22,442 bases of DNA from a virus: positions 1 through 22,442 of IMG/VR virus record IMGVR_UViG_3300021488_000004; one strand, 5' to 3'. How positions within the stretch are numbered: position 1 is the first letter of the stretch; each line of letters begins with the position of its first letter. Shown piece after piece: positions 2-7,051 of the stretch. The notes beneath the pieces were generated by a model. The model did no database searches and was not told the origin of the DNA. It was given only the letters and a program-made list of their open reading frames with translations. The position numbers and the translations under genes are program-made.

Positions 2-136
2 GATAGTGTTGATTTAGTTACATATCCAGCAGCAGGAGGCAGATTTTTAAGAATGGTGGCATCTAGGCTTGCTGCCAGTATTGGAAAGCAAGAAGAGGGG
101 CAAAAAGAAGGATTAAATAGAAAAGGAGGTAACAGC
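2..136 (+). CDS. 3' end of a prohead-protease-like ORF, in frame with the capsid gene (partial)
   Basis: The reading frame is open from the first complete codon and has no stop before the capsid start at 137. Its translation begins DSVDLVTYPAAGGRFLRM. The pattern S-V-D-[LIV]-V-T-x-P-x-A-G-G-R is, from my memory of phage head genes, typical of the region just after the catalytic domain of prohead maturation proteases. It is followed by a short Gln/Glu/Lys-rich stretch. The protease domain itself lies outside the window, so no catalytic residue can be checked. Because there is no stop, ribosomes that read this gene would continue into the capsid protein unless initiation at 137 is the main route. 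In lambda (C/Nu3) and Mu (I/Z) the scaffold is likewise encoded in frame inside the protease gene. The protease assignment rests on one short motif. Confidence 0.5.
123..132 (+). promoter_or_regulatory. Strong internal Shine-Dalgarno deciding the capsid start
   Basis: AAGGAGGTAA lies four bases upstream of ATG 137 and inside a longer open frame. The identical decamer precedes the genes at 1881 (1869-1878), 5940 (5928-5937), 6077 (6061-6070) and 7075 (7063-7072). This is why 137 is chosen over the in-frame ATG at 53, which has no comparable site. Confidence 0.8.
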
Positions 137-1846
137 ATGAACCCTATGTTACTGGCAATCAAAGGATGGAAAAGTGGTCTCCAAGAGGGACAAGCGGTAG
201 AAGCTACTGATGATGTAGTTTCTGCAATCTTTGGCAATGTATTGGATGAGGAAATAATAAAAGAGTCTCGTGACGAATTAAAGGAGATTATTACTCAATG
301 TGTTGGCTTTTTAAGTGAAGGAAAAGAGGAGCTAGCTGAAGCCCTTATTACAGGGATTGTTGAGGCTAAGAAGAAGAAAAAGAAAAAAGACGAGTATCCT
401 ACTCCTGCGGAAAAATATCCAGCACCTCAAAAGGCTTCTACTCAAAACGAGCCTAATGGTGATATGGAAGAGGCTAAAAAGAAAAAGAAAGATGAATATC
501 CTGCTTATCCTGAAATTCAGAAACAATCTCAAGACTTAGAAGCTCTCAAAAATGAGATTACCAGATTGAAATTAGAAAAATACTTAGAAGAAGCTCTTAA
601 AGAGTCTGGTTTGACCAGTGTATCTAAAGAGCAAATCAGAAACATGCAGTTTAGTTCTACTGAAGACATAGACAAGGCTATCGGAAATATGAAAGATTTA
701 GAAGCCAAGTTTATGCAGGAAGCTGGAGTTTCAAGCAAGGTTGAAGCGGGCAATACAGAAGGTGAAAAAGTATTGCAAATGATTGAGGATGTATTAGAGG
801 GTAAATCTCATAGCATCAAAGAGGCTTATATCAGGTTTACTGGTGATAGAAAGGTAACTGGTTTAATTAAGGAATGTGCAGGAAGGGGTAAAGCAAGGAT
901 TACTGAAAGCTTGACAACCTCTGATTGGGCAGAAGCTTTAGGCGATACTTTAAGACGGAAACTTATAAAAGAATATAAGGTATCTGGATTAGATGACTGG
1001 AAAAAGATAGTATCTGATATTGTGCCTTTACCTGATTTTAGAGACCAGCACTGGATTAGATTAGGTGGGTATGGTGAGCTTCCTTCTGTATCTCAAGGTT
1101 CAACCTACACAGAACTTACCTCGCCAACTGATGAGGAAGTGAAGTTATCCGTAGGTAAATATGGTGGCCTTGAATCGGTCACACTGGAAATGATAAAGAA
1201 TGATGACATTCTTGCAGTTAGACAAATCCCTAAACGGTTAGCAAGAGCTGCTGCACAGGCTCTCTACAATGCCATATTTGATGATATTTTAAAGGATAAT
1301 GCAACCATTTATGATAATGTTGCTTTATTCCATGCTAGCCATAGTAATTTAGGTTCTACAGCTTTATCACCAACATCCTTTATGGCAACCAGAAAAGCGA
1401 TGGGACAGCAGACTGCTTATGGAAATAGTGAGGAGTATTTAAATCTTTATCCTAAATACTTGATTGTGCCACTTGACCTTGAAGATACAGCATTTAAGCT
1501 CTGTCATTCACCTGTGTTTGTAAACACTGCAACATATTATTCTGGTGGTGGTGCATCAGAAGCTGCAACTACTCCTAATATTGTGCCTCAGAAATTTAAA
1601 ACTGATTATATCGTAGTGCCTAGATGGACAGATGCTAATGATTGGATTGCTGTGGCTGACCCGAATATGTGTCCTACAATTGTTGTTGGTTTCTTGGATG
1701 GCAATGAAGAGCCTGAAATATTTATTCAAGACCAGCCTTCAGTTGGTAGCTTATTCTATGCTGATAAAATTGTTTATAAAATCAGGCACATTTGGGGTGT
1801 AGCTGTATTTGATTATAGGCCATTTTATAAACATGCTGTAGGTTAA
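137..1846 (+). CDS. Major capsid protein, Mu gpT-like, with N-terminal scaffold-like extension
   Basis: This 569-residue protein probably forms the HK97-fold capsid shell. The C-terminal part, from about residue 253 to the end, resembles the Mu major head subunit gpT family. It has a mixed alpha/beta start (ITESLTTSDWAEALGDTL), a LFHASHSNLG segment followed by a Leu/Pro-rich YPKYLIVPLDLED, and a late VGFLDGNEEPEIF strand pair near the end. Mu gpT is about 305 residues, so roughly 250 residues are extra here. The extension is charged and helical, with two lysine-rich segments (residues 76-88 and 112-122), as expected of a scaffold or delta domain that is removed by the prohead protease. The start at 137 follows a perfect SD. 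The same frame is open further upstream into a protease-like sequence, so a longer fusion product is possible. The capsid call is fairly sure; the scaffold role and cleavage are inferred. Confidence 0.85.
   Translation: MNPMLLAIKGWKSGLQEGQAVEATDDVVSAIFGNVLDEEIIKESRDELKEIITQCVGFLSEGKEELAEALITGIVEAKKKKKKKDEYPTPAEKYPAPQKASTQNEPNGDMEEAKKKKKDEYPAYPEIQKQSQDLEALKNEITRLKLEKYLEEALKESGLTSVSKEQIRNMQFSSTEDIDKAIGNMKDLEAKFMQEAGVSSKVEAGNTEGEKVLQMIEDVLEGKSHSIKEAYIRFTGDRKVTGLIKECAGRGKARITESLTTSDWAEALGDTLRRKLIKEYKVSGLDDWKKIVSDIVPLPDFRDQHWIRLGGYGELPSVSQGSTYTELTSPTDEEVKLSVGKYGGLESVTLEMIKNDDILAVRQIPKRLARAAAQALYNAIFDDILKDNATIYDNVALFHASHSNLGSTALSPTSFMATRKAMGQQTAYGNSEEYLNLYPKYLIVPLDLEDTAFKLCHSPVFVNTATYYSGGGASEAATTPNIVPQKFKTDYIVVPRWTDANDWIAVADPNMCPTIVVGFLDGNEEPEIFIQDQPSVGSLFYADKIVYKIRHIWGVAVFDYRPFYKHAVG
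362..502 (+). repeat. Two lysine-rich direct repeats in the scaffold region
   Basis: Two imperfect in-frame copies encode E-A-K(5-7)-D-E-Y-P, the first at 362-400 with seven lysines and the second at 470-502 with five. They are separated by a Pro/Gln/Asn-rich linker of 23 residues. A further Y-P or K-Y-P-A-P step follows each copy. The copies look like a short duplication retained in the protein. Confidence 0.75.
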
Positions 1847-2294: not shown

Positions 2295-2303
2295 TTAAAA
2301 CGG

Positions 2304-2358
2304 AGTAGCCTAGTCTGGACTAATTGGCAAAGACCTCTAATAGCAGAACTAGGCTACT
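2304..2358 (+). repeat. Perfect 11-bp inverted repeat (possible RNA hairpin)
   Basis: AGTAGCCTAGT at 2304-2314 is exactly complementary to ACTAGGCTACT at 2348-2358, with a 33-base loop. No T-tract follows, so it does not look like an ordinary intrinsic terminator. It starts ten bases after the preceding stop codon, and the possible TTG start at 2324 lies in its loop. It could act as an attenuator, an mRNA processing or stability element, or a remnant of the junction where the enzyme cassette entered. Confidence 0.55.
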
Positions 2359-2401
2359 TCATATAAACCAGGTTGGCTTTTTTAATGGCACTGGTGTGAA
2401 A

Positions 2402-3589
2402 ATGAATTTTGAATATATTAACCCTTCTCCAACTCTTTTCATTGTTACTGGATGTCCTCGTTCAGGAACTACCTTTCTAATTGAACAAATCAAAGAACAT
2501 CTCAAAGTGCCAGTGTTGGGATATGACGACCTAGGTTTACACAGAGAGTGGAAGACTGCAATAGCAGCTAATTCCATTCTCTTAGGAGATATATTTGCAG
2601 ATTTAAAACCAGAAATGCCTAACAATGTTAACATGGAAAAACAATTTGAAGAATTTAAAGAATTTCTTATATCTAGTAAGGATGAGTTTAGTGAACATCC
2701 AATGTATTTTTTTAAAGACCCAAGGATTTGTCACACATGGCCATTCTGGATGAGATTATTTGAAATTAGAATTATTCATATAGTTAGAAAATTTGAAGGC
2801 GTTTTTAATAGTATTGACCAAGTAGATAATGTTGGTGGCAAAGAGGTTAGATTTAGATGGATTAAGCCTAAAAATCAATGGAAAGTAATTTGGGAAAATC
2901 ATGTAAATAAAGCCAGAGAAAGCAATGAATATTTACCTTATTTAGAAATACCATTTGAAAGTTTTATTGAAAATCCTAAACCTTGGATTGAAAAGATTGC
3001 TAACTTTGTTAAAGCTCCTGAAAAATGTTTAAATTTAGGTAGTGGTTTAGCACCAAAAGCAGGAGAGGAATGGGTGAATTTGGATTACAATGCTGATTAT
3101 ATTCCACCTGCTAAATATGGTGTAAATGGAGTTGTTGCAGATTTGGAAAGTCCATTGCCTTTTAAAGATAATACCTTTAGTTTTATTCTTGCAAACCATA
3201 TCCTTGAACATATCAAAAATTATGAACAATTGATGTGTGAGATATATAGAGTATTAAAAATTGGAGGCAGATTGATAATTAGAGTTCCTTATGCGTTTTG
3301 CCGTGCTGCAATAGCTGACCCATCGCATGTAAGACAGTTCGTTCCTGAGTCGTTCTTTCACTTTTTGCCTGATAATTTAGGGCCAGTTGCAAATCGTAAA
3401 TTCTGGGGAACGTTTAAGTTAATTGATTTAGAAATAATTAAGCATGACAGACCAGGGATAGATAGGGGTGAAGTGGGTTCATTTTTCACAGAAATATATG
3501 TAGAGTTAGAAAAAATACCAAAGCAAGAGCCACCTAAACCAAAATGGATTGAGAGAGACGATGAGCAAAGGCAAGGCAATAATATTTAG
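2402..3589 (+). CDS. Sulfotransferase-methyltransferase fusion protein
   Basis: The 395-residue protein joins two enzyme domains. Residues about 10-205 look like a PAPS-dependent sulfotransferase: the 5'-phosphosulfate loop TGCPRSGTTFL is at 16-26, and RIIHIVRKFEGVFNSI at 123-138 supplies the 3'-phosphate Arg129 and Ser137 with the family's eight-residue spacing. Residues about 207-360 look like a class I SAM-dependent methyltransferase: glycine loop LNLGSG at 210-215, acidic Asp228 after the second strand, ANHILEHI at 264-271, and YRVLKIGGRLIIRVP at 282-296. The likely job is sulfation and methylation of a sugar or other small acceptor. The start is uncertain: ATG 2402 leaves the sulfotransferase intact but has only a weak SD, and an in-frame TTG at 2324 would add 26 residues. 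The gene overlaps the next one. The domains are clear; substrate and pairing partner are unknown. Confidence 0.88.
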   Translation: MNFEYINPSPTLFIVTGCPRSGTTFLIEQIKEHLKVPVLGYDDLGLHREWKTAIAANSILLGDIFADLKPEMPNNVNMEKQFEEFKEFLISSKDEFSEHPMYFFKDPRICHTWPFWMRLFEIRIIHIVRKFEGVFNSIDQVDNVGGKEVRFRWIKPKNQWKVIWENHVNKARESNEYLPYLEIPFESFIENPKPWIEKIANFVKAPEKCLNLGSGLAPKAGEEWVNLDYNADYIPPAKYGVNGVVADLESPLPFKDNTFSFILANHILEHIKNYEQLMCEIYRVLKIGGRLIIRVPYAFCRAAIADPSHVRQFVPESFFHFLPDNLGPVANRKFWGTFKLIDLEIIKHDRPGIDRGEVGSFFTEIYVELEKIPKQEPPKPKWIERDDEQRQGNNI

Positions 3590-4586
3590 AGGATACATGG
3601 CCATAGGTGATGCACTTTATACATCTGCATTGCCTAGGTTAATGAAAGAGGATGGCTATGAGCAGGTAGATGTTGCTGTTTGGCAGTCAAACCAGCATGT
3701 ATTTTGGAATAATCCTTATGTTGATAATATCAGAGTATTCCCAAATGATTTAACAGAAACGGAATTTGAATATTATTATAATAAATGGAATGAAGAATAT
3801 GATGTTATTGTGGATTTAAGGTGGACAATAGAAAGCAAATATTTATTTAGAACGGATGCTCCTTTACCACCGATAGAAGAAAGAAAAAAGAAAAATAAGG
3901 GTAAGAATTATTATAGAGTTACTATGGAAGTTGCAGGATACAAAGTAGATAAAGGCAAGCCTGAATTATATTTATCTGATGAAGAAGAAAAGTTACTTAA
4001 TGAATTTAAAAAAGAGAATCCTAAGTTTGTGATTTGGCAGTTATATGGCTCATCCAATGCGAAGCAATTGGTAAGAGCACCGATATGGATTACAGAGATT
4101 ATGAAGCAAGTGCCTGATTGTAAACATTATTTAGTAGGTAATGCCCATTTTAGCACCAAGAGATTATTTGGTTCAGATAATGTTAAATGTGTAGCAGGTA
4201 TTTGGGGGTTAAGAACTTCTATGCTAATGTGTAAGTATGCCAATTTAGTAGTTGGGCCTGAATCCGCTATAACCAATGCTTCGGGTGCTTTTGATACGCC
4301 TAAGTTTATAATGTATTCAGGAGTATTACCTGAAAATCTTGGGGGTGATTTTGAAAACCATTATGGTTTCTGTCCTAAATGTGAATGTTATCCTTGCTAT
4401 AAAATCAGTATCAGCCCAAAAGAAGTCTGGAATTTGAAAAAGAGAAAACTTGCTTATGCAAATATGGAAGAATGTAGAGTTAAAGACCCATTTGATTGTT
4501 ATAGGTATCTAGGATTTAAATGCACATTAAGCCTTCCAGAACAAGAGATAATAGAGAAGGCTGTGGATATTTTAAAACATAGTTAG
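3561..4586 (+). CDS. GT9-type glycosyltransferase (heptosyltransferase-like)
   Basis: This 341-residue protein fits the GT-B fold of family 9, whose best-known members transfer ADP-heptose to lipopolysaccharide core. The N-terminal domain has the family's opening, AIIFRGYMAIGDALYTSALP (residues 6-25), including the conserved Gly-Asp. The C-terminal nucleotide-sugar domain has LVVGPESAITNASGAF (about 229-244), matching the G-P/D-S-x-x-x-H/N-x-A motif, though Asn replaces the usual His. A cysteine cluster C-P-K-C-E-C-Y-P-C at 271-279 and later cysteines (EEC, FDC, FKC) suggest a metal site, which is not usual for classical heptosyltransferases. ATG 3561 is preferred to TTG 3549. It overlaps the upstream gene by 29 bases, which suggests translational coupling. 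Family-level call is solid; donor and acceptor are unknown. Confidence 0.82.
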   Translation: MSKGKAIIFRGYMAIGDALYTSALPRLMKEDGYEQVDVAVWQSNQHVFWNNPYVDNIRVFPNDLTETEFEYYYNKWNEEYDVIVDLRWTIESKYLFRTDAPLPPIEERKKKNKGKNYYRVTMEVAGYKVDKGKPELYLSDEEEKLLNEFKKENPKFVIWQLYGSSNAKQLVRAPIWITEIMKQVPDCKHYLVGNAHFSTKRLFGSDNVKCVAGIWGLRTSMLMCKYANLVVGPESAITNASGAFDTPKFIMYSGVLPENLGGDFENHYGFCPKCECYPCYKISISPKEVWNLKKRKLAYANMEECRVKDPFDCYRYLGFKCTLSLPEQEIIEKAVDILKHS

Positions 4587-4595
4587 GAGGAAGAA

Positions 4596-4901
4596 ATGAT
4601 TGGTGGAGTAACCATAGAAGAATATGATGCTTATGATAAGGAAACAATTACTGTAGGCTCAACAGCAGTGGGCTTTACAAGTAGTAAAATTACCAACTGT
4701 AAAGTTGCCTTTTGCACTCTTGATACAGGTGGTGGAGCAATTAGATATTGGATTGATGGTTCAACGCCAACTGCCACATCAGGGCATTATGTAGCTGCTG
4801 GAGATAGTTTTACCATTGTGGGAACTAATAATATTCGGAATTTTAAAGCAATACGAGTAGGTGCAGATGATGGCACATTACAAGTAACATACAAAAGGTA
4901 A
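4596..4901 (+). CDS. Small beta-rich phage structural protein
   Basis: This 101-residue protein begins nine bases after the glycosyltransferase stop with an AGGAGG site. It resembles small proteins I have seen in head or neck clusters of tailed phages, with the pattern IRYWIDGSTPTATSGHYVAAGD followed by an IRNFKAIRVGADDGTLQVTY end. The pattern of short strands and turns predicts a compact beta-sandwich of the kind used for decoration or neck proteins. It contains two Cys (KVAFC and TNC) and no membrane segment. Its return to strong SD use and to the general composition of the virion genes suggests that the structural operon resumes here after the enzyme cassette. The exact place in the particle cannot be told from sequence. 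Confidence 0.6.
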   Translation: MIGGVTIEEYDAYDKETITVGSTAVGFTSSKITNCKVAFCTLDTGGGAIRYWIDGSTPTATSGHYVAAGDSFTIVGTNNIRNFKAIRVGADDGTLQVTYKR

Positions 4902-4906
4902 GAGAA

Positions 4907-5464
4907 ATGCGAATACCAGCTAAGTTAGAAAATATAAATAAAGTTTTAGAGCAAATTAAAGCAGATATAAAAAATCGTATTCTAACAGCAGGGCAACGAA
5001 CTACTGAGCAAACAACTCAATTAAGCTGGGAATTAATGAAAGAACATGCACCAGTGGCTTCTGGTAGTTTAAGAGGTTCAATAGGGAAGAGAGTTATTTA
5101 TGGTTATCCAATAATGTTTGGCGTATCAATGACTGGATTATCACCAAGAAGAAGTAGTGGTGGAGAAGTTTCAACTGGATATGCACAAGCAGTTGAATAT
5201 GGAGTGCCTGCTGGTGCTTATGGGTATGAGCAACATGGCAGGAATTATTCAGGAGTGCCACCTTGGGGTGAAGGCTCAAGATTATATGAATGGGTTAGGC
5301 TCAGAGGTTTATCTCCTGCTTTGGCTGTTTCTGCTAAGATTGCTCGTAAAATAGGACGGAGGGGGATTACGGCAAAGCATTTTATTAAGAAATCCCATTC
5401 AGTCTTAGTAGGTAGATTACCAGATGTAGTAAGAAGAATATTTGACAAACATTTGCATTTTTAG
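4907..5464 (+). CDS. HK97 gp10-like neck/tail-completion protein
   Basis: The 185-residue protein matches the layout of the HK97 gp10-like family, which completes the head-tail joint. There is an N-terminal helix (KLENINKVLEQIKADI), then the hallmark HAPVASGSLRGSI at residues 47-59 (family A-P-V-x-[TS]-G-x-L-[KR]-x-S), then YAQAVEYGVPAG, a PPW...L-Y-E-W-V-R-x-R-G-L segment, and a late ARKIGRRGITAKHFIKKS that parallels the conserved 'G-x-x-A-x-[PH]-F' end. Length is somewhat above the family's usual 110-150 because of a loop between the two halves. Its start is five bases after the preceding gene, and the tail terminator follows, the usual gene order. Confidence 0.78.
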   Translation: MRIPAKLENINKVLEQIKADIKNRILTAGQRTTEQTTQLSWELMKEHAPVASGSLRGSIGKRVIYGYPIMFGVSMTGLSPRRSSGGEVSTGYAQAVEYGVPAGAYGYEQHGRNYSGVPPWGEGSRLYEWVRLRGLSPALAVSAKIARKIGRRGITAKHFIKKSHSVLVGRLPDVVRRIFDKHLHF

Positions 5465-5939: not shown

Positions 5940-6080
5940 ATGGCAAAACGATTAAGATTTCAAAGCAGAGCAGGAGGACATTATTCACCTACTCCTGCCA
6001 AGGCAGATAAAGAGGTTAAGATAACTAAGACAAAAGAACCTAAACAAAATATTAAAGGCAAAGGAGGTAAAGAGAAATGA
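5940..6080 (+). CDS. 46-residue basic protein
   Basis: A short open frame starts MAKRLRFQSRAGGHYSP after a perfect AAGGAGGTAA with a two-base spacer and ends in TGA that overlaps the tail tube ATG (ATGA). It has 14 Lys/Arg against four Asp/Glu, with a Lys-rich C-terminal half ending KGKGGKEK. The last codons KGG coincide with the SD of the tail tube gene. Its SD, spacing and coupling argue that it is translated. I recognise no family. It may only couple translation to the tail tube gene, or it may be a small virion or assembly protein. Confidence 0.7.
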   Translation: MAKRLRFQSRAGGHYSPTPAKADKEVKITKTKEPKQNIKGKGGKEK

Positions 6081-7051
6081 GCTTATTACTTAGAAGGAGC
6101 GTTTTATTAGGCAAGGTTGAAGATAACTACGGAACGGATGCCTCTCCTACAACTGCGGATGCAATTTTATGTGCAGCTCCTACTGTAACTCCAGCAGGTG
6201 ATTTATTAACGAGAGACTTTGTTAGGTCTTCAATTTCACCATATCCTCATGTCATTGGTGCTAAAACAGTGGAAGTAACTTTTGACACAGAAATTAAAGG
6301 TTCAGGCACAAATTCAAGCACATCTACTAGTGCAATCATTCCTGAAATTGGAGTGTTATTTAGGGCATGTGGATTAAGTGAGACTGTAACTTGGGGTTCT
6401 ACTTCTGGCACACCTACCACTTATAATGATTTAACTGCATCTTATCAACCTGTATCCACTAATTTTGAAAGTGCTACAATTTATGTTTATTTTGACGGAG
6501 TGCTTCATAAAATAGTTGGATGCAGAGGTAGTGCTGTATTTACTTTAGATGCAGGTGCGTTTCCTAGGATTAGCTGGACTTTCAGAGGATTTTATCAGGA
6601 TGTTGTAGATGCAAGTATGGTATCGGGTGTTTATGATGATACCAAACCGCCAATTGTTGAGTCTATCAGTTTAGTATTAGGTTCTTACTCGCCTAAAGTG
6701 CAATCAGTGAGTATTGACCTTGCAAATACTATTGCAGAGATTAGAGATGTAAATGCTTCGGAGGCAATGAGAGAAATCGCAATCACAGCTAGAGATACTA
6801 ATGGAAGAATTAATCCTGAAATGGATTTAGTTGCTAATTATGATTTCTTTGGTATCTGGAAGAATGCCACTGAAAAAGCTATGAGTTGCACAATTGGAAG
6901 TTCAGGTGGAAATCGTGTAATCTTCTCTTGTCCATCAATTCAAGAAAGTAGTTTAGCTTATGGTGATAGAGAAGGAATTAGAGTATTGGACATCCCGATT
7001 AAGTTAGCAAGTGAATCTGGAGATGATGAGTTAGTAATTAAGTTTACTTAA
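6077..7051 (+). CDS. Major tail tube protein
   Basis: The 324-residue protein forms the tail shaft. Its start, LLLRRSVLLGKVEDNYGTD followed by a 'SPTTADAILCAAPTVTP' segment, is the opening seen in many siphovirus tail tube proteins ('K-x-E-x-x-Y-G-T-D-x-x-P-T-x-A-D-A'). Next comes a basic/aromatic RDFVRSSISPYPHVIGAKTV, a VTFDTEIKGSG strand, and LFRACGLSETVTW, which corresponds to the 'L-L-R-A-C-G-F' motif. The remainder is beta-rich, as expected for a tube fold. It carries one of the strongest SDs of the window, in line with a high-copy protein, and is followed by the tail assembly chaperones. The predicted fold and position agree. Confidence 0.85.
   Translation: MSLLLRRSVLLGKVEDNYGTDASPTTADAILCAAPTVTPAGDLLTRDFVRSSISPYPHVIGAKTVEVTFDTEIKGSGTNSSTSTSAIIPEIGVLFRACGLSETVTWGSTSGTPTTYNDLTASYQPVSTNFESATIYVYFDGVLHKIVGCRGSAVFTLDAGAFPRISWTFRGFYQDVVDASMVSGVYDDTKPPIVESISLVLGSYSPKVQSVSIDLANTIAEIRDVNASEAMREIAITARDTNGRINPEMDLVANYDFFGIWKNATEKAMSCTIGSSGGNRVIFSCPSIQESSLAYGDREGIRVLDIPIKLASESGDDELVIKFT

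What the first reader, a model, noticed from the sequence alone, without database searches (positions are those of the whole stretch)
2402..3589. PAPS-type sulfotransferase fused to a methyltransferase inside a phage head operon
The 5'-phosphosulfate loop TGCPRSGTTFL and the R129/S137 pair mark a sulfotransferase, and a complete class I methyltransferase core follows with almost no linker. Seen: both motif sets in one ORF. Known: PAPS sulfotransferases transfer sulfate to hydroxyl or amino groups of sugars and small molecules, and class I methyltransferases use SAM. Inferred: two-step modification of one acceptor, such as a surface glycan. I know of no standard phage morphogenesis gene of this kind.
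Basis: partly seen in the sequence, partly recalled or inferred. Interest (0 to 1): 0.78.

Follow-up and report, generated by a model that had tools for sequence, protein, structure and literature searches.

The report
Phage sulfotransferase-methyltransferase fusion with glycosyltransferase
A bacterial or archaeal virus carries, in the middle of its head-building genes, a single enzyme that looks able to add both a sulfate and a methyl group, next to a sugar-adding enzyme, which suggests the virus decorates its own particle (or its host's surface) with chemically capped sugars.

Summary
ORF 2402-3589 (+) is one intact 395-aa protein: Sulfotransfer_3 at residues 14-204 (E 8.7e-9), then a class I methyltransferase (Methyltransf_11 at 219-293, E 4.8e-13), with a linker of only a few residues. 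It lies between a major capsid/decoration pair and neck/tail genes. The fusion is no assembly error: four further viral contigs encode it full length (81-98% identical; one has a stop codon), and both halves are under strong purifying selection (dN/dS 0.06-0.09).

A second, very divergent phage (L036/L082) has another ST-MT fusion beside GT2, GT9 and an APS kinase next to the terminase, plus a GT/methyltransferase/sulfotransferase island directly after its capsid gene. The best reading is a virion-glycan decoration cassette (GT9 adds a sugar, the fusion caps it by O-sulfation and O-methylation), analogous to the Corndog modification genes. Host-surface modification is the main rival. Acceptor and activity are unproven. 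I rate it a new variant of a known kind. A conserved RNA hairpin without an Rfam match precedes the gene.

The parts
53..1846 (+). Major capsid protein (C-terminal part of a protease-MCP fusion; N-terminal part cut by the window edge)
   Evidence: Phage_capsid_4 1.9e-47; prohead protease/MCP fusion models; 778-792 aa ORF in L004/L005
1881..2294 (+). Probable head decoration protein
   Evidence: Position directly after the MCP; homologue after the MCP in L025 (32%, 7.6e-11); no Pfam family
2301..2366 (+). Conserved RNA hairpin in the leader of the fusion gene
   Evidence: z = -3.56; 3 double-compensatory pairs among kin; no Rfam match
2402..3589 (+). PAPS-type sulfotransferase (residues about 10-205) fused to class I SAM methyltransferase (about 206-360)
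   Evidence: Pfam, PDB profile, kin, dN/dS
3561..4586 (+). GT9-like (heptosyltransferase-type) glycosyltransferase; start overlaps the end of the fusion gene by 29 nt
   Evidence: GT9 profile: hmmsearch 1.5e-7, hhalign 89.5% over 288 columns, control 0.1%; overlap kept in window, L002, L004, L005, L006; not detected by Pfam PF01075
4596..4901 (+). Small beta-sandwich protein, possible decoration or carbohydrate-associated domain
   Evidence: CHB_HEX_C_1 8.1e-6, above cut-off
4907..5464 (+). Neck / tail completion protein (downstream border of the cassette)
   Evidence: phrog_5 1.2e-3
6077..7051 (+). Tail tube protein (context)
   Evidence: Phage_tube_2 2.3e-17

Best explanation
The fusion and the overlapping GT9-like gene form a two-gene late-expressed glycan cassette. 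The GT9-like enzyme transfers a sugar from a nucleotide-sugar donor. The bifunctional enzyme then caps hydroxyls of that glycan: its N-terminal half transfers sulfate from host-made PAPS, and its C-terminal half transfers methyl from SAM. Because the genes sit in the head operon beside two probable decoration proteins, the most likely acceptor is a glycan on a virion protein (capsid or decoration protein), giving the particle a charged, methyl-capped surface. Shown by sequence: domain identities, cofactor motifs, intact fusion in several contigs, purifying selection, fixed linkage to the GT, position in the head operon, and recurrence of sulfotransferase/GT islands in head modules of unrelated phages. 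Inferred: catalytic activity, sugar acceptor, virion target, order of steps.
For: Families and motifs. The low-confidence model's best structural matches are still PAPS sulfotransferases, with class I methyltransferases further down. Purifying selection on both halves, dN/dS 0.06-0.09, and on the GT. The same contigs are recovered with the fusion and with the GT as query, and the overlapping start is kept. GT9 assignment. The cassette is absent from the fetched flanks of six more distant capsid relatives, so it is an insertion in the slot between capsid/decoration and neck genes. Independent phage G031: ST-MT fusion + GT2 + GT9 + APS kinase beside the terminase, and GT2/methyltransferase/sulfotransferase/GT2 directly after the major capsid protein, before the head-tail adaptor. 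L069, L032 and L035: sulfotransferase genes near portal, terminase or head genes, with methyltransferases, GTs or sugar-isomerase genes in L032 and L035. The closest cellular relative of the MT half (L084) sits beside an LPS-type GT2 gene. Precedent: Corndog O-methyltransferase + GTs between portal and protease, proposed to modify the capsid (PMC4351075).
Against: No acceptor glycan or virion chemistry is known. No PAPS-making gene was found in this lineage (APS kinase absent), so it depends on the host. The sulfotransferase half passes straight into the methyltransferase and has no recognisable C-terminal third as in SULTs (Sulfotransfer_1 match stops at 182/255), so activity is not assured. 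L002 carries a stop codon in the fusion. AlphaFold models were poor (pLDDT 31 and 48). The second fusion is a single contig.
Confidence: 0.5

Rival explanations
1. The cassette modifies a host cell-surface glycan during infection (for example LPS, S-layer or capsule glycan), to block superinfection or to stop released virions from binding debris.
For: GT9 enzymes are mostly LPS heptosyltransferases; one cellular relative of the MT half lies by an LPS-type GT2 gene (L084); phage GTs of O-antigen conversion exist (phrog_841 matches the L074 sulfotransferase-GT2 fusion).
Against: The genes sit in the late head operon between capsid and neck genes, not in a lysogenic-conversion position; no tyrosine-type integrase in the kin contigs (contigs incomplete); no membrane anchor or flippase gene next to it.
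Confidence: 0.27
2. The sulfotransferase half sulfates a virion protein directly (tyrosine sulfation, like TPST) and the methyltransferase half methylates protein; the glycosyltransferase is a separate system.
For: Tyrosylprotein sulfotransferases are the top structural matches of the weak model.
Against: TM-scores are low; the P-loop sulfotransferase fold does not tell the acceptor; the gene is always tied to a GT.
Confidence: 0.09
3. It is a DNA hypermodification system: base glycosylation followed by sulfation and methylation.
For: A viromics paper cites Iyer et al. 2013 for glycosyltransferase and sulfotransferase base-modification systems in phages (PMC10829341).
Against: No TET/JBP oxygenase in any of the five contigs; GT9-like enzyme and head-operon position do not fit; methyltransferase relatives include a glycan locus.
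Confidence: 0.05
4. The fusion is a decaying cargo gene or a chance joining with no present function.
For: One kin copy (L002) has an in-frame stop.
Against: Intact in window, L003, L004 and L005; dN/dS 0.06-0.09 over saturated synonymous sites.
Confidence: 0.04

Closest known systems
Mycobacteriophage Corndog/Cluster O modification genes gp35-gp38 (PMC4351075)
   Same: O-methyltransferase and glycosyltransferases inside the virion structural operon, made in infected cells, proposed to modify the capsid
   Different: No sulfotransferase; separate genes rather than a fusion; lies between portal and protease, not after the capsid gene
Sulfotransfer_3 / PAPS sulfotransferases (CurM 4gbm, OlsA-type 4gox, TPST)
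   Same: 5'-PSB GxPRSGTT loop and R-x7-S 3'-phosphate motif
   Different: Fused to a methyltransferase straight after the last shared helix; no recognisable C-terminal SULT segment; acceptor unknown
GT9 heptosyltransferases (WaaC/WaaF)
   Same: Full-length profile match, GD..TSALPRL and VVGPESAITNASGA motifs
   Different: Below Pfam detection; very divergent; in a phage head operon
Moumouvirus sulfotransferase / adenylyl-sulfate kinase glycan genes (PMC10117803)
   Same: Virus-encoded sulfation and methylation genes associated with virion-fibril glycan genes
   Different: Eukaryotic giant viruses, separate enzymes, no fusion

Membership tests
PAPS-dependent sulfotransferase (Sulfotransfer_3) | 5'-phosphosulfate-binding loop | tested here: met
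   TGCPRSGTTFL at 16-26; conserved in distant phage sulfotransferases
PAPS-dependent sulfotransferase (Sulfotransfer_3) | 3'-phosphate motif R-x7-S | tested here: met
   R129 and S137 nearly invariant
PAPS-dependent sulfotransferase (Sulfotransfer_3) | Whole-domain profile match | tested here: met
   8.7e-9, model 3-211/216; PDB 4gbm 4e-12
PAPS-dependent sulfotransferase (Sulfotransfer_3) | C-terminal PAPS-contact segment of SULT-type enzymes | tested here: inconclusive
   Sulfotransfer_1 match ends at 182/255; the methyltransferase follows directly
PAPS-dependent sulfotransferase (Sulfotransfer_3) | Sulfate transfer from PAPS | not testable with these tools
   -
Class I SAM methyltransferase (Methyltransf_11) | Motif I and Rossmann core | tested here: met
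   LNLGSG at 210-215, D228, D247; Methyltransf_11 4.8e-13
Class I SAM methyltransferase (Methyltransf_11) | O-methylation of a sugar | not testable with these tools
   One cellular relative in an LPS-type locus, indirect only
GT9 glycosyltransferase (gene 3561-4586) | Family profile | tested here: inconclusive
   hhalign 89.5% and custom HMM 1.5e-7, but no PF01075 match
Phage virion glycosylation cassette | GT and sugar-modifying genes within the structural operon | tested here: met
Phage virion glycosylation cassette | Modified glycan on virion proteins | not testable with these tools
DNA hypermodification system | Base-oxidising enzyme (TET/JBP) in the genome | tested here: not met
   No match in five contigs
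Lysogenic serotype conversion | Temperate phage with integrase | tested here: inconclusive
   No PF00589 match, but contigs may be incomplete

The most novel reading that the evidence does not exclude
Phages of unrelated lineages have more than once built sulfoglycan coats: head-operon islands in which a glycosyltransferase, a PAPS sulfotransferase and a methyltransferase (here the last two fused into one enzyme, in one lineage with its own APS kinase) put sulfated, O-methylated sugars on the virion surface.
Probability: 0.3. Interest if true: 0.78.

Novelty: new variant of a known kind. Interest (0 to 1): 0.58.

Why it matters
Virion glycosylation in phages is documented in mycobacteriophages, where it affects immune recognition (Freeman et al. 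2023, known here only through a citing paper, PMC12894461). Sulfation of phage particles would be new to my knowledge. A single bifunctional sulfate/methyl capping enzyme gives a compact target: one gene deletion or one mass spectrum would tell whether phage particles carry sulfated glycans. If so, it would bear on particle stability, adsorption and escape from glycan-binding defences.

Tried and rejected
AlphaFold of the fusion with the 4-row alignment (pLDDT 31) and an 11-row alignment (pLDDT 48): too poor to stand alone; only the sulfotransferase core is moderate. Search of cellular genomes for the fusion: none by pattern; in 299 sampled genomes of one bacterial phylum all listed matches were to one half only. 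Host: not determined; the capsid search of genome contigs gave one 47% relative. Annotated phages: no match to the ST half, the GT, or the ST parts of the independent phage. Pfam and PDB sequence searches did not identify the GT; only the custom GT9 profile and profile-profile comparison did. DNA modification and integrase tests negative. Papers with the IMG sample numbers: none.

Full report
Observation. ORF 2402-3589 (+) encodes 395 aa without a stop. Pfam places Sulfotransfer_3 at 14-204 (8.7e-9) and Methyltransf_11 at 219-293 (4.8e-13), both above curated cut-offs. The loop TGCPRSGTTFL and R129/S137 are as described. In an alignment with six divergent phage sulfotransferase sequences the nearly invariant columns are G17 C18 P19 R20 S21 G22 T23 T24 R129 S137 E182. 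A profile of that alignment finds solved PAPS sulfotransferases (CurM 4gbm 4e-12; 4gox 5e-12; SULTs; TPST1) and class I methyltransferases.

Not an artefact. The same fusion is found full length in four other viral contigs, L002 (98%), L003 (96%), L004 (95%) and L005 (81%), and its C-terminal part in L006, which starts inside the gene. L002 has one internal stop. Between window and L005, synonymous sites are near saturation while dN/dS is 0.086 for the sulfotransferase half and 0.064 for the methyltransferase half. Both halves are therefore kept by selection.

Surroundings. Upstream are a protease-type major capsid protein (53-1846) and a probable decoration protein (1881-2294); downstream are a small beta-sandwich protein (4596-4901), a neck protein (4907-5464), a tail tube and a tape measure. 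The next gene, 3561-4586, begins 29 nt before the fusion ends, an overlap kept in the window, L002, L004, L005 and L006. It has no Pfam hit. Against a GT9 alignment built from E. coli WaaC/F/Q/U and bacterial family members it scores 1.5e-7 by HMM (down to 1e-9 for kin) and 89.5% by hhalign over 288 columns, with 0.1% for the fusion as control. It is a GT9-type glycosyltransferase. Searches with the fusion and with the GT recover the same contigs. In the fetched flanks of six more distant capsid relatives (39-47% over the capsid) the cassette is absent, so it is an insertion of this lineage.

Independent parallels. A DNA pattern for GCPRSGTTFL in 2.9 million viral contigs gave the kin plus three others; a looser one added L069, L073 and L074 as further sulfotransferase carriers. 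L036 (31% GC) holds another ST-MT fusion (Sulfotransfer_3 3.9e-8, Methyltransf_11 4e-11), followed by GT2, GT9 (1.2e-11), an APS kinase (2.2e-17) and the terminase. Further along the same contig (L082), GT2, methyltransferase, sugar-transferase-like, sulfotransferase (4.2e-15) and GT2 genes lie between the major head protein and the head-tail adaptor, the same slot as in the window. The two fusions share only about 25% identity. Whether the fusion arose once or twice is open, and the second is one contig. L069, L032 and L035 hold sulfotransferases near portal, terminase or head genes, with methyltransferases, GTs or sugar isomerases in L032 and L035. L074 fuses a sulfotransferase to a GT2.

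Mechanism. Shown: families, cofactor motifs, linkage, selection, location. Inferred: the GT9-like enzyme adds a sugar, and the fusion adds sulfate (from host PAPS; no APS kinase in this lineage) and methyl to that glycan; the target is most likely a virion surface protein. The nearest precedent is Corndog, whose O-methyltransferase and glycosyltransferases in the head operon are proposed to modify the capsid (PMC4351075). Mimivirus relatives carry sulfotransferase, adenylyl-sulfate kinase and methyltransferase genes in glycan clusters linked to virion fibrils (PMC10117803). A rival is modification of the host surface, since GT9 enzymes usually build LPS and one cellular relative of the MT half lies in an LPS-type locus. 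DNA modification is unlikely.

Caveats. Structure prediction failed for lack of homologues; the weak model nevertheless matches TPST/SULT structures first. The sulfotransferase half lacks a recognisable C-terminal SULT segment. No host is known. Activity and acceptor need experiment.

RNA element. Between the decoration gene and the fusion lies a 66-nt hairpin with an almost invariant internal loop (z -3.56), three double-compensatory changes in L005, no Rfam match and no occurrence outside the kin contigs. A second hairpin follows whose 3' arm contains the start codon in most kin. It may regulate the gene; this is untested.

Noticed in passing
window 2301-2366 (+): Conserved RNA hairpin with a nearly invariant internal loop and compensatory stem changes in kin phages, directly upstream of the fusion gene; no Rfam family. 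A second hairpin (about 2367-2396) encloses the start codon region of most kin.
   Followed up: partly
L006:1-960: An intein (LAGLIDADG_3, ending HN/C) interrupts the methyltransferase half at its post-motif HILEH site; the intein reading frame appears shifted, and the contig starts inside it.
   Followed up: partly
L005:54-4415: A 1453-aa ORF upstream of the capsid gene contains what looks like an intein (CVDDKTEILTKDRGW...), not tested.
   Followed up: no
L082:4692-10703 and L036:3122-7576: One 40.9-kb phage contig carries two glycan/sulfation islands, one by the terminase (with an APS kinase) and one right after the major capsid gene.
   Followed up: partly
L074:4460-6181 (-): Sulfotransferase fused to a GT2 glycosyltransferase (573 aa) in a 130-kb viral contig.
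   Followed up: partly
window 2386-2401: The start used by kin (ATGGCACTAGC, MALA) reads MALV-stop in the window because of an indel, moving the start to ATG 2402.
   Followed up: yes
L002:2768-2770: In-frame TAA inside the fusion gene of a 98% identical relative: sequencing error or decaying copy.
   Followed up: no
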